Shown: positions 1,889 through 11,744 of the stretch, in pieces | Layout of the letters: the number at the start of each line of letters is the position of its first letter | How positions within the stretch are numbered: the stretch's first letter is position 1 | NCBI GenBank assembly: GCA_017623605.1 | Contig: JAGAOR010000027.1 | Location: 1 to 40,148, forward strand | Length of the DNA stretch: 40,148 bases | Reading direction: 5' to 3' | From: Clostridia bacterium | Lineage (GTDB): Bacteria > Bacillota > Clostridia > Christensenellales > Borkfalkiaceae | Notes under the pieces: model-generated | What the model was told of the DNA's origin: nothing | What the model saw: the letters and a program-made list of their open reading frames with translations, nothing else | Database searches by the model: none | Position numbers and translations under genes: made by a program

Positions 1889-2575
1889 TCATAAGGGATC
1901 TTTGCGTTCTTTGCCTTGACCTCTAGGGTATTTAGGGGGCGTTCCTTTCACCTTTTTCACAACGGCAAGTGTGCGTTCACCGTAATTTTCGGGCAGGGAA
2001 TAGCCGATTACGTTTTCCAGCTTTCCACCTAAAATTTTATACGCCGTTTCCGCTTCCTTGATCTCCGTTTGGTCTCCGCTTTTATACGCAATAAACGTTC
2101 CGCCTACTTTTACAAACGGTAAACAATATTCACAAAGGGTGTTCATTCTCGCAACCGCCCGCGCGGTGGCGTGATCGTAGCGTTCGCGGAAATTTTTATC
2201 TTTTGCGCACGTTTCCGCCCGTAAGTTATAAATATGCATTTTTGAAAACCCTAATTTATCCACAACTACTTGCAAAAATTCACACTTTTTTCCCACGCTT
2301 TCAAACAGATCAAAGGACAAATCAGGACGCAATATTTTTAATACGATCGAGGGAAAGCCCGCTCCCGAACCGATTTCCGCTACCCGCGCGTTCTCTTTGA
2401 AAAAACTTTCGCCGATCGCGCTATCGAGAAAGTGTTTATACAACATATCTTTCTCTTCTGTGATTGTAGTAAGGTTATATTTTCCGTTATATTCGAGCAA
2501 AAGTGCGCGGAAAGCTTCAAATATCTCCCGTTTTTCATTCTCTATTTCGTTTTGATAAATACGCACGTTTTCCAT
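1889..2575 (-). CDS. rsmG: 16S rRNA m7G527 methyltransferase RsmG
   Basis: The product (228 aa from the chosen start) is RsmG (GidB), the SAM-dependent enzyme that methylates G527 of 16S rRNA. Visible motifs are the N-terminal YNLTTI stretch, HFLDSA, the SAM-binding loop AEIGSGAGFPSIVLKILRPD, and ATARAVA. An in-frame ATG lies 12 codons upstream (2611), but the promoter -10 box sits between the two ATGs, so the start at 2575 is preferred. No ribosome binding site precedes it and the predicted transcription start is at or one base before the ATG, so the mRNA would be leaderless. In many Firmicutes rsmG is near oriC, as here. Confidence 0.95.
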   Translation of the reverse strand: MENVRIYQNEIENEKREIFEAFRALLLEYNGKYNLTTITEEKDMLYKHFLDSAIGESFFKENARVAEIGSGAGFPSIVLKILRPDLSFDLFESVGKKCEFLQVVVDKLGFSKMHIYNLRAETCAKDKNFRERYDHATARAVARMNTLCEYCLPFVKVGGTFIAYKSGDQTEIKEAETAYKILGGKLENVIGYSLPENYGERTLAVVKKVKGTPPKYPRGQGKERKDPL

Positions 2576-2582
2576 AGTCTTT

Positions 2583-2611
2583 ATTATAACACGCTTTTTA
2601 AAAAAGATCAA
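2583..2611 (-). promoter_or_regulatory. Promoter of rsmG, predicted leaderless
   Basis: On the minus strand, TTGATC (2606-2611) and TATAAT (2583-2588) are separated by exactly 17 bp. The expected transcription start (about 2576) falls next to the rsmG ATG (2573-2575), leaving no room for a ribosome binding site. Confidence 0.85.
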
Positions 2612-2935
2612 TCGTTTTCCACCCCTTGGTGGAAAACGGTGTATAACCTATCCACAATGTTTATATCTTCGGTGGACTACTTTTTTATTTGTTATTTTTT
2701 CCTCTTTTTTTATTTTTTATTTATTCTTTCTTCTTTATTCTTTCTCCTCCTTGTCCACCTTTCCACAATTTCTACACTTTTTTATCCACCTTTTTTTCGC
2801 GGTTATCCACCCTTTATTTTATCACGAAAAAGTTAGCTTTTTAAAGGTTTATATCAATCGGAAAAGGGGCTGTCCACAAATCCACAATACTCTACTAATA
2901 CTACTACTCTTATTATTTTAATATATCTATCCTTG
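2612..2935. other. oriC: Candidate replication origin (oriC) with DnaA-trio-like element
   Basis: This gene-free region separates divergent rsmG and the SLOG-family gene. It holds, from left to right: a perfect 11-bp hairpin (2613-2623/2628-2638) whose arms contain TTTTCCACC; one-mismatch DnaA boxes CTATCCACA (2649-2657) and TTATCCACC (2782-2790 and 2803-2811); a long pyrimidine-rich tract (about 2677-2818); and two close box-like sites TGTCCACA (2871-2878) and AAATCCACA (2878-2886). These are followed directly by triplets CTA CTA ATA CTA CTA CTC TTA TTA (2892-2915) and then an AT-only stretch. The last three parts are in the order box, DnaA-trio, AT-rich unwinding element known from the B. 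subtilis origin. No perfect TTATCCACA is present, and dnaA is not adjacent. Confidence 0.72.
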
Positions 2936-2943
2936 GTACACGC

Positions 2944-2971
2944 TTGACAAAAAGAGAATTTTTGCTATAAT
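2944..2971 (+). promoter_or_regulatory. Consensus promoter of the SLOG-family gene, near-leaderless
   Basis: TTGACA (2944-2949) and TATAAT (2966-2971) match the sigma-A consensus perfectly with a 16-bp spacer. The expected start (about 2978) is only three bases before the ATG at 2981, so the AGAGGT at 2972-2977 would not be in the transcript. Confidence 0.9.
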
Positions 2972-2980
2972 AGAGGTATT

Positions 2981-10485: not shown

Positions 10486-11196
10486 ATGCTTTTTGGATTG
10501 AATGCAAGTTGGGTACATTACGCCTTGGACGGCATCGTGTTGGTTTTAATCGTTGCGTTTGCCGCGTCGAGCGCAAAAAAGGGGTTTGTGGAATGTTTCT
10601 TCGGGTTTATTTCCACCATTCTCGCGATCGTTACGGCATTTTTATTTATGAAAGGCGTACTTTCTTGGACGGGCGGCTTGTTTGGATTACAAGACGTGAT
10701 TGAAAACGCGGTGGTCGGCGGGCTTGGCAAAATTACGGGCTTTGATATAGACGTGTCGGCGGCAGGAATCGAGGCGGCGCTCGCGGATAAAAATTTGCCG
10801 TCGTTTTTGGTAAACGCCGTCATAGAAAGCGTAGGCAATCAAGAATTGCCGCTCGGTACGACGCTTGCAATGGTCGTGGGCGGCTCGATCGCCGAATTTA
10901 CCGCAACGCTGATCGCGTGGTTTTTGGTGTTCTTGCTCGTGAAGCTTTTATTAAAGCTCGTGCAACGCGTGCTTACTTCGATCGTGGAAAATCTTCCGAT
11001 CGTCGGCTCGCTCAATCACCTGCTGGGCTTTGTCGTCGGCGGACTTCAAGGACTTTTAATTGCCTGCGGTGTGATCGCCGTCGTTGCGCTCATTCCCGCA
11101 GAGGGCTTGAACGCCTTTTTCAACGAATGTTTGATCGTCCGTTGGCTGTATAATAGTAATCCCATACACGTCATTTTTAGCTGGATTATCCACTGA
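10486..11196 (+). CDS. CvpA-family membrane protein
   Basis: The 236-aa protein belongs to the CvpA family, integral membrane proteins first linked to colicin V production and more recently to envelope stress and bile resistance; the mechanism is unknown. The family pattern is visible: a first hydrophobic segment followed by KKGFVECFFGFISTIL (about 30-45), two more segments, and the late PIVGSLNHLLGFVVGGLQG motif. It has its own promoter and terminator. Its 3' end contains TTATCCACT (11186-11194), a one-mismatch DnaA box that belongs with the cluster immediately downstream. Confidence 0.88.
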   Translation: MLFGLNASWVHYALDGIVLVLIVAFAASSAKKGFVECFFGFISTILAIVTAFLFMKGVLSWTGGLFGLQDVIENAVVGGLGKITGFDIDVSAAGIEAALADKNLPSFLVNAVIESVGNQELPLGTTLAMVVGGSIAEFTATLIAWFLVFLLVKLLLKLVQRVLTSIVENLPIVGSLNHLLGFVVGGLQGLLIACGVIAVVALIPAEGLNAFFNECLIVRWLYNSNPIHVIFSWIIH

Positions 11197-11744
11197 AATT
11201 TTAAGCGTAACGAAAGGTCGAGGCGCGTTCCTCGACCTTTTCTTTTTGCCAAATATACATTTATACCTCGCCTTATAAATCTCCCCGAATGTGGATAACT
11301 TTTTACTTCTGTGGAAAAGAACGTACGTTTGTGGACAAAATTACACACTTTTATCAAAATCGTTCGCTTTTTTCCGTTTTTTAAGAAAGATTTTGTTCAT
11401 TTTAAAGAGTTATCCACAAAAAAGCTCCCGTTTTTCAGTTGTGCACAAGCCGTTTGTGGACGGGTTATCCACCGATTTTCGCCTGTTTTTGAGTGGTTGC
11501 ATGCGGAATGCCTGACGAATAGAATTTTACGCGCGTTATCCACGGTAAGCTTATCCACATTTTTGCTTCCGGGTAGGTGGACAACCCCGTTTTATCCACA
11601 TTTTAAGTGGATAGGTGGGGAAAAATGGGGGTATGCATAATTTTATAAATTTATTTTTCGACGCTCTTCGACATAACGATAGGGCTTTCGACAAGAAAGT
11701 TTTCCACCACTTAAAAACCGCTGAAAAAAGTTATCCACACCCGT
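11186..11744. other. Second DnaA-box cluster (origin half or DnaA-titration site)
   Basis: About 500 bp without genes lie between convergent cvpA and gerC. I count five perfect DnaA boxes: TGTGGATAA at 11290-11298, and TTATCCACA at 11410-11418, 11551-11559, 11592-11600 and 11731-11739. Variants with one mismatch are TTATCCACT (11186-11194), TTATCCACC (11465-11473), TTATCCACG (11536-11544), TGTGGAAAA (11310-11318) and TGTGGACAA (11330-11338). An AT-rich stretch lies at about 11634-11660. No DnaA-trio-like triplets are seen next to any box. The region is flanked by convergent genes, which is unusual for an active origin. Confidence 0.85.
11213..11246 (+). terminator. Intrinsic terminator after cvpA
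   Basis: A perfect 11-bp stem AAAGGTCGAGG/CCTCGACCTTT (11213-11223 and 11230-11240) followed by a T-rich run. Confidence 0.93.

What the first reader, a model, noticed from the sequence alone, without database searches (positions are those of the whole stretch)
2870..2935. DnaA-trio-like unwinding element beside rsmG, without dnaA
Two abutting box-like sites (TGTCCACA and AAATCCACA) are followed at once by in-register triplets CTACTAATACTACTACTC, TTATTA, and then an AT-only stretch. This is the order of the basal unwinding element described for B. subtilis oriC, where DnaA loads from boxes onto trinucleotide repeats. Divergent flanking genes (rsmG left, SLOG gene right) and dnaN 1.7 kb away fit an origin. 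The surprise is that dnaA is not here and the boxes are all imperfect.
Basis: partly seen in the sequence, partly recalled or inferred. Interest (0 to 1): 0.75.

Follow-up and report, generated by a model that had tools for sequence, protein, structure and literature searches.

The report
Replication origin that left dnaA behind
This stretch is very probably the place where an uncultured gut Clostridia bacterium starts copying its chromosome, far from the gene for its starter protein DnaA, and about 9 kb away sits a second, strictly spaced array of DnaA binding sites that may help control when copying starts.

Summary
Two imperfect DnaA boxes (2870-2886), a 5-bp spacer, nine in-register NTN triplets (2892-2918) and AT-rich DNA meet the published sequence rule for a basal unwinding system (BUS). 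The module sits 5' of rsmG in 28 of 30 genus loci and 17 of 18 rsmG-bearing dnaN neighbourhoods (overlapping sets). The cumulative GC-skew minimum lies 64-71 bp from it in three relatives, inside the homologous region in a fourth, 5.4 kb away in a fifth; a sixth gave no clear signal. In one relative dnaA lies 288 kb away on the same contig, with no skew switch there. So this is almost certainly oriC. In the rest of the order dnaA is mostly within 1 kb of dnaN; in this family it was at least 4.9 kb away in all 16 genomes with both on one contig. Its spacing is conserved in most genus members although it flips and moves; measured distances from rsmG are 7.6-19.6 kb. A trio origin near dnaN, apart from dnaA, has a precedent in Synechococcus elongatus. 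The geometry-locked array is the newer part. Nothing was tested experimentally.

The parts
2573..2980 (.). rsmG-SLOG intergenic region, proposed oriC
   Evidence: 10 DnaA-box-like sites (<=2 mismatches) in 408 bp; window cumulative GC minimum at 2932; homologous region at the skew minimum in four relatives and 5.4 kb from it in a fifth
2615..2656 (.). rsmG-proximal box group: TTTTCCACC (+) facing TTTTCCACC (-), TTATACACC (-), CTATCCACA (+)
2751..2811 (+). middle box group: TTGTCCACC, CTTTCCACA, TTATCCACC, TTATCCACC
2870..2886 (+). tandem DnaA boxes of the BUS (CTGTCCACA, AAATCCACA), counterpart of the TTGTCCACA-ATTCCACn pair common in relatives
2887..2891 (+). 5-bp spacer ATACT between boxes and trios (GC-richer in many relatives)
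2892..2918 (+). DnaA-trios, nine in-register NTN triplets (read 3'-NAN-5' on the other strand)
2891..2930 (.). proposed DNA unwinding element: among the least stable 40-mers of the window (ranked second, tied)
2944..2971 (+). TTGACA-16-TATAAT promoter-like site firing away from the BUS into the SLOG gene
   Evidence: read in the sequence; not scored against chance
1889..2572 (-). rsmG (gidB), left flank
   Evidence: PF02527
2981..3481 (+). YpsA/SLOG-family gene, right flank
   Evidence: PF06908
4652..5761 (+). dnaN
   Evidence: PF00712, PF02767, PF02768
11186..11739 (.). satellite DnaA-box cluster (DBC) between the 3' ends of cvpA and gerAC; 10 boxes with <=1 mismatch, 5 perfect
   Evidence: flanking genes
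11290..11600 (+). geometry-conserved core of the DBC (sequence-profile match 11288-11604, 189.9 bits; this copy is in the training alignment)
11318..11338 (+). conserved left-arm motif AGAAC-GTAC-GTTTGTGGACAA: dyad abutting box B3
11577..11600 (+). conserved right-arm motif GTGGACAACCC + TTATCCACA

Best explanation
Positions 2573-2980 are the chromosomal replication origin (oriC) of this Clostridia genome, and 2870-2930 is its unwinding module. Inferred mechanism, from the B. subtilis system: DnaA-ATP made from a distant dnaA gene binds the array of weak boxes and the tandem pair. The pair loads a DnaA oligomer onto the trios of the opposite strand, which stretches and opens the AT-rich DNA toward dnaN so that helicase can load. 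dnaA left the origin in or before the ancestor of the family, while the oriC2-type module stayed on the dnaN side. About 9 kb away a geometry-locked array of strong boxes (11186-11739), one strong copy per genome where searched, most likely holds DnaA and damps re-initiation, being duplicated soon after the forks leave. Shown by computation: the sequence module, its conservation, the skew switch in relatives, separation from dnaA, conservation of array geometry. Inferred: unwinding, helicase loading, the history of dnaA, and the array's regulatory role.
For: BUS sequence rule met (rule; sequence). Not chance. In the rsmG 5' region in 28 of 30 genus loci, the window included (the 30 best of 50 matches in 49 of 57 genomes). 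Top-ranked BUS hit (by number of CTA, then run length) of 11-18-kb neighbourhoods in 17 of 18 rsmG-bearing loci; 12 of the 18 are of the same genus, 6 of four other genera. Cumulative GC minimum vs BUS: 71, 64, 65 bp in G095, G088, G049; inside the homologous region in G120. No skew switch on own contig C15 or at dnaA in G095. In 30 dnaA loci (best 30 of 56 genomes with a match) no cluster of 3 or more boxes and no BUS of >=4 trios with >=2 CTA. Trios resemble B. subtilis CTACTATTACTTCTACTA and C. difficile CTACTACTATTACTACTA. Array.
Against: The window's own contig has only 3 kb left of the site, so its skew switch cannot be tested in this genome. In G002 the skew minimum is 5.4 kb from the BUS; in G095 a least-squares change point (not the minimum) falls 21 kb away; G007 gave no clear signal. 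G120 has an interrupted trio run, G142 a weak one without CTA; G049 has only three trios, G046-type hits such as L046 only three with one CTA. The genomes of named relatives are all MAGs; there is no read depth, no footprint and no unwinding assay. One review holds that the B. subtilis clusters play no significant role in initiation, which weakens the analogy used for the array.
Confidence: 0.9

Rival explanations
1. The true origin is the strong box array at 11186-11739, and the trio site is secondary.
For: It holds five of the window's seven perfect boxes and its geometry is conserved.
Against: No BUS of >=4 trios with >=2 CTA in any of 30 cvpA-side loci, 25 of which hold an array. In G088 and G049 the array lies on the other side of the BUS (about 8.5 and 14 kb) and the skew minimum stays at the BUS. 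The array moves and flips.
Confidence: 0.03
2. The origin is beside dnaA (contig C15), as in most bacteria.
For: General rule; dnaA sits with mnmG and recF.
Against: No cluster of 3 or more boxes and no BUS in 30 of 30 dnaA loci examined; one skew sign across the 51.6-kb dnaA contig and around dnaA in G095.
Confidence: 0.01
3. The trio run is a by-product of an AT/pyrimidine-rich divergent promoter region.
For: The region is T- and C-rich and both flanking genes start there.
Against: Shuffles that keep dinucleotide content do not give it. The in-register CTA/ATA core, the paired boxes and the spacer recur across species.
Confidence: 0.02
4. The array at 11186-11739 is not a titration or inactivation site but the distant, displaced half of a bipartite origin (an oriC1-like enhancer) that must loop to the BUS.
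For: C. difficile unwinding in vitro needs both oriC1 and oriC2; the array was 7.6-19.6 kb from rsmG in all 22 of 30 genomes where both were on one contig and an array was found; arm spacing is about 250 bp with variants near 240 and 263, i.e. steps of about a helical turn.
Against: Distance, side and orientation vary; published bipartite halves are usually separated by dnaA alone; no array was found in G143, though only its cvpA locus and its perfect boxes were examined.
Confidence: 0.2
5. The array regulates transcription of cvpA or the ger operon.
For: DnaA is also a transcription factor; the array adjoins cvpA in 25 of 30 loci.
Against: In the window it lies between convergent 3' ends (cvpA ends 11196, gerAC ends 11745); it flips, and in G120 it lies about 9.5 kb from cvpA with geometry intact.
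Confidence: 0.04

Closest known systems
Bacillus subtilis incC / basal unwinding system (BUS)
   Same: Boxes, short spacer, CTA-rich trios, AT-rich unwinding DNA; between dnaA and dnaN there, on the dnaN side here
   Different: dnaA is not adjacent; this copy's boxes have two mismatches each; strong boxes are about 9 kb away
Clostridioides difficile oriC2
   Same: Trio sequence CTACTACTATTACTACTA (passage) differs by one base from CTACTACTAATACTACTA in three genus copies (G133, G135, G139); both lie upstream of dnaN
   Different: There oriC is bipartite around dnaA; here dnaA is elsewhere and a SLOG gene and a YeiH-like gene lie between module and dnaN
Synechococcus elongatus oriC
   Same: oriC near dnaN at a skew shift point; [quoted passage not shown] its BUS was functional in vitro
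   Different: Unrelated phylum; no satellite array was looked for there
B. subtilis DnaA-box clusters (DBCs); E. coli datA
   Same: Clusters of DnaA boxes outside the origin; removal of six B. subtilis clusters gives early initiation; datA is close to oriC and depends on site spacing
   Different: One strong array per genome in the genus sample, with box geometry that survives inversion and relocation; conserved AAC-RNNY-GTTTG dyad; no biochemical function known

Membership tests
Basal origin unwinding system (DnaA-box + DnaA-trio), PMC8287927 | Box with <=2 mismatches (pair: <=2 and <=4) | tested here: met
   CTGTCCACA and AAATCCACA, 2 mismatches each
Basal origin unwinding system (DnaA-box + DnaA-trio), PMC8287927 | Spacer 0-16 bp, then >=3 trios with conserved middle A on the bound strand | tested here: met
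   Spacer 5 bp; nine NTN triplets, four CTA
Basal origin unwinding system (DnaA-box + DnaA-trio), PMC8287927 | Located in the chromosome origin (skew switch) | tested here: met
   Tested in six relatives, not in the window's own genome: within 71 bp in three, in the homologous region in one, 5.4 kb off in one, no clear signal in one (G007)
Basal origin unwinding system (DnaA-box + DnaA-trio), PMC8287927 | DnaA-dependent strand separation needing boxes and trios | not testable with these tools
   Needs a strand-separation assay
Classical oriC of Firmicutes | dnaA adjacent to oriC/dnaN | tested here: not met
   dnaA on C15; in the family 4.9-287.6 kb from dnaN in 16 same-contig cases of 121 genomes
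Bipartite origin (B. subtilis, C. difficile) | Two box clusters that act together in unwinding | tested here: inconclusive
   Two clusters about 9 kb apart exist; joint action cannot be tested
oriC-proximal DnaA-box cluster (DBC) | Dense DnaA boxes outside oriC, near oriC | tested here: met
   10 boxes <=1 mismatch in 554 bp, 8.9 kb from the rsmG start
oriC-proximal DnaA-box cluster (DBC) | Deletion causes early initiation | not testable with these tools
   No experiment
datA | IHF-dependent DnaA-ATP hydrolysis | not testable with these tools
   No IHF-site search was made; only the spacing constraint and closeness to the origin resemble datA

The most novel reading that the evidence does not exclude
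The array at 11186-11739 is a geometry-locked DnaA machine of Clostridia. About a dozen boxes, two arms held near 250 bp apart with variants a helical turn shorter or longer, and a conserved dyad for an unknown partner form one nucleoprotein complex. That complex converts or delivers DnaA to a dnaA-less origin 8-20 kb away: a Gram-positive counterpart of datA/DARS, or a long-range half of the origin, rather than a passive sink.
Probability: 0.35. Interest if true: 0.75.

Novelty: new variant of a known kind. Interest (0 to 1): 0.55.

Why it matters
It gives a sequence-exact candidate origin for a family of uncultured gut Clostridia and shows the BUS persisting apart from dnaA, in an order where most sampled genomes of other families keep dnaA beside dnaN. 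That makes a natural experiment on whether dnaA adjacency matters. The satellite array is a ready test of whether Gram-positive DnaA-box clusters are passive sinks or structured regulators, because its geometry predicts that spacing changes of half a turn should break it and whole-turn changes should not.

Tried and rejected
Tried: (1) origin beside dnaA: rejected by uniform skew and lack of boxes. (2) Array as origin: rejected. (3) Conserved dyad in the array as a LexA box: the LexA consensus I had in mind is recalled, and the literature search for it found nothing. 17 GAAC-RNRY-GTTY sites in 797 kb vs 2 in one mononucleotide shuffle, but several of the 17 are the array's own motif, and one of these lies in overlapping stretches and is counted twice. 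Two other sites that looked closest lie near an integrase gene and near Vsr/replication-protein-like genes. Left open. (4) Okumura 2012 is not held, so its result is taken from passages of other papers. One search also says the B. subtilis clusters play no significant role in initiation. (5) A geometry-score null made of dnaA loci and distant stretches is too easy; I replaced it by re-placing each cluster's own boxes at random. 0 of 200 re-placements reached the observed score in 25 of 39 loci, 1 of 200 in 5 more, and 5 to 200 of 200 in 9. Those 9 are five cvpA loci with no array beside cvpA (L094, L095, L100, L112, L116) and four arrays that depart from the template (L097, L103, L105, L119). 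The nine-box template was drawn from L091, L092 and L099; L099 is among the 39, and L152, L154 and L156 repeat scores of other rows and are probably the same species. (6) Weak matches of the array model in other genera (best 50.8 bits, next 37.6) were not counted as arrays; some lie at origins.

Full report
WHAT IS THERE. Between rsmG (- strand, start 2572) and a YpsA/SLOG gene (2981 +) lie 408 bp with ten DnaA-box-like sites of at most two mismatches. The last two, CTGTCCACA 2870-2878 and AAATCCACA 2878-2886, are followed by ATACT and by CTA CTA ATA CTA CTA CTC TTA TTA TTT (2892-2918), then AT-rich DNA. By the published search rule (box <=2 mismatches, spacer <=16, at least three trios; PMC8287927, methods section read) this is a BUS. 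Dinucleotide shuffles do not reproduce it: 0 of 2000 for the intergenic region at >=4 CTA in a run of >=6, and 0 of 100 for the whole window at >=4 CTA; 5 of 2000 gave a run of nine NTN of any kind. The DNA at 2891-2930 ranks second among the least stable 40-mers of the window, tied after rounding.

WHOSE GENOME. The window is contig C46 of a 47-contig, 81%-complete genome without a name. The nearest named relatives by DnaN (up to 89% identity) are MAGs called Clostridia bacterium from deer, sheep and goat guts.

IS IT THE ORIGIN. Only 3 kb lie to the left of the site in this contig, so I used relatives. I fetched dnaN neighbourhoods from 20 family members (chosen among the 117 genomes with a match in 121 searched). 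Eighteen contain rsmG: 12 of the window's genus and 6 of four other genera. In 17 of the 18 the top-ranked BUS hit (by number of CTA, then run length) of the whole 11-18-kb stretch lies in the rsmG 5' region. The exception is G120; some hits are short (three trios in G049 and in L046). In the genus, 28 of 30 loci, the window included, have at least four trios with at least two CTA there; these are the best 30 of 50 matches in 49 of 57 genomes and overlap with the 18. G142 has a weak run and G120 an interrupted one. The common pattern is TTGTCCACA-ATTCCACn, 4-6 often GC-rich bases, then CTA/ATA trios such as CTA CTA ATA CTA CTA, then AT-rich DNA.

GC skew. Six relatives were looked at. In stretches of 60-120 kb around the site the cumulative minimum falls 71 bp (G095), 64 bp (G088) and 65 bp (G049) from the BUS box and inside the homologous region in G120; in G002 it is 5.4 kb away. 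A least-squares change point agrees in G088, G049 and G120, repeats the 5.5-kb offset in G002, and is 21 kb off in G095. G007 gave no clear switch in 4-kb bins. The own dnaA contig (51.6 kb) has one sign in all 13 bins of 4 kb. In G095 dnaA sits 288 kb from dnaN, in a 40-60-kb stretch whose ten 2-kb bins are all negative, the weakest (-0.006) at 46-48 kb. Within the window the cumulative minimum is at 2932, with little weight because of the short left arm.

WHERE dnaA WENT. Of 121 sampled family genomes, 16 have dnaA and dnaN on one contig, with gaps of 4.9-287.6 kb; in the rest the two were on different contigs or one was not found. In the order outside this family, 61 of 74 same-contig cases have a gap under 1 kb, 8 have 1-10 kb and 5 have more. 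So adjacency is most simply ancestral, and dnaA left the origin in or before the family ancestor (inference; no tree was built). The module that stayed on the dnaN side is of the C. difficile oriC2 type: its published trio CTACTACTATTACTACTA (passage) differs by one base from the copies in G133, G135 and G139. B. subtilis has CTACTATTACTTCTACTA (passage).

THE SECOND CLUSTER. The window's strongest boxes are elsewhere: ten with at most one mismatch, five perfect, in 11186-11739. They lie between the 3' ends of cvpA and gerAC in the window, so a promoter role is unlikely here. Seven of the genome's 22 perfect boxes lie in the first 12 kb of this window. Of 30 cvpA loci in the genus (the best 30 of 52 matches in 51 of 57 genomes), 25 carry a cluster of 8-13 boxes beside cvpA. 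In four others three to eight perfect boxes cluster about 2-10 kb from cvpA (G120; G130, G151, G163); the profile below confirms G120 and G151. None was found in G143, where only the cvpA locus and perfect boxes were examined. In 22 of the 30 the array and rsmG share a contig and are 7.6-19.6 kb apart; in 7 they do not share a contig or rsmG was not found. G088 and G049 have it about 8.5 and 14 kb off on the other side of the BUS.

Its geometry is conserved. Box order and spacing (20-20-51-29-55-71-15-41 bp in the window, one position being a degenerate box) recur in both orientations relative to cvpA, and in G120, where the element has left cvpA. With each cluster's own boxes re-placed at random, 25 of 39 loci were never matched in 200 trials, 5 were matched once, and 9 were matched 5 to 200 times. 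Those 9 are five cvpA loci with no array beside cvpA and four arrays that depart from the template. The 39 include one template source (L099) and three probable repeats of species. In 15 elements chosen for good fit, box columns are 81% identical and spacers 45%, against 28% by composition. A sequence profile built from 16 elements finds a strong match (56-195 bits, 225 or more of 322 positions) in 17 of 19 genus genomes. At least 7 of these 17 were in the training set; the other 10 score 56-134. G020 and G122 have only weak matches. In 132 genomes of other genera the best score is 50.8 and the next 37.6. In 21 of 38 loci scanned that keep both arm motifs exactly, the arms are 248-254 bp apart in 17, 239-241 in 3 and 263 in 1. 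These look like steps of a helical turn, but relatedness among the species is not corrected for. A dyad AAC-RNNY-GTTTG abutting one box is kept in 16 of 16 aligned elements.

HOW IT PROBABLY WORKS. Origin: as in B. subtilis, DnaA loads from the tandem boxes onto the trios and opens the AT-rich DNA toward dnaN (inferred). The basal reaction is shown for other species in PMC8287927 (two sections read, one in part) and PMC6669920 (discussion read). Satellite array: most likely a DnaA sink or inactivation site that doubles soon after initiation and lowers free DnaA-ATP. Precedents are the B. subtilis clusters, whose joint deletion gives early initiation (passages), and datA (passages). Against this, the review also states that the B. 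subtilis clusters play no significant role in initiation. The conserved geometry says more than a passive sink is likely. A long-range half of a bipartite origin remains possible: C. difficile needs both halves for unwinding in vitro (passages).

NOVELTY. A trio origin near dnaN apart from dnaA is not new in kind: S. elongatus oriC lies near dnaN while cyanobacterial dnaA and dnaN are separate (passages), and its BUS works in vitro. My searches for a relocated dnaA in Clostridia (one paper) and for box clusters in Gram-positives (12 of 15 listed, 8 of 21, 8 of 91) listed no paper whose title or abstract start described this. I read only passages of a few, and the library lacks most subscription journals. 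I file the origin as a BUS member on sequence and position, with its activity untested, and the whole as a new variant because of the geometry-locked satellite.

Noticed in passing
11318-11331 and A1 alignment: Conserved dyad AAC-RNNY-GTTTG abutting DnaA box B3 in 16 of 16 aligned arrays; resembles a Gram-positive LexA box (consensus recalled), partner unknown.
   Followed up: partly
G000:C15 (L001) and G095:C2:45577-46908: dnaA lies on the strand opposite to the leading-strand sense implied by local skew in both genomes, i.e. probably head-on to the fork.
   Followed up: partly
L035 (G036): rsmG and the BUS are inverted together relative to dnaN, so the BUS there points away from dnaN.
   Followed up: no
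2944-2981: TTGACA-16-TATAAT ends 9 bases before the SLOG start codon, suggesting a leaderless or near-leaderless transcript starting at the edge of the origin.
   Followed up: no
2613-2638: Perfect inverted repeat CGTTTTCCACC-CCTT-GGTGGAAAACG made of two facing DnaA-like boxes at the rsmG end of the origin.
   Followed up: no
G143 (L112, L192): Genus member with no satellite array found beside cvpA or among its perfect boxes, but four perfect boxes inside the origin itself: a possible replacement.
   Followed up: no
G040:C18:6800-7023: A 50.8-bit match to the array profile in another genus, perhaps a divergent relative.
   Followed up: no
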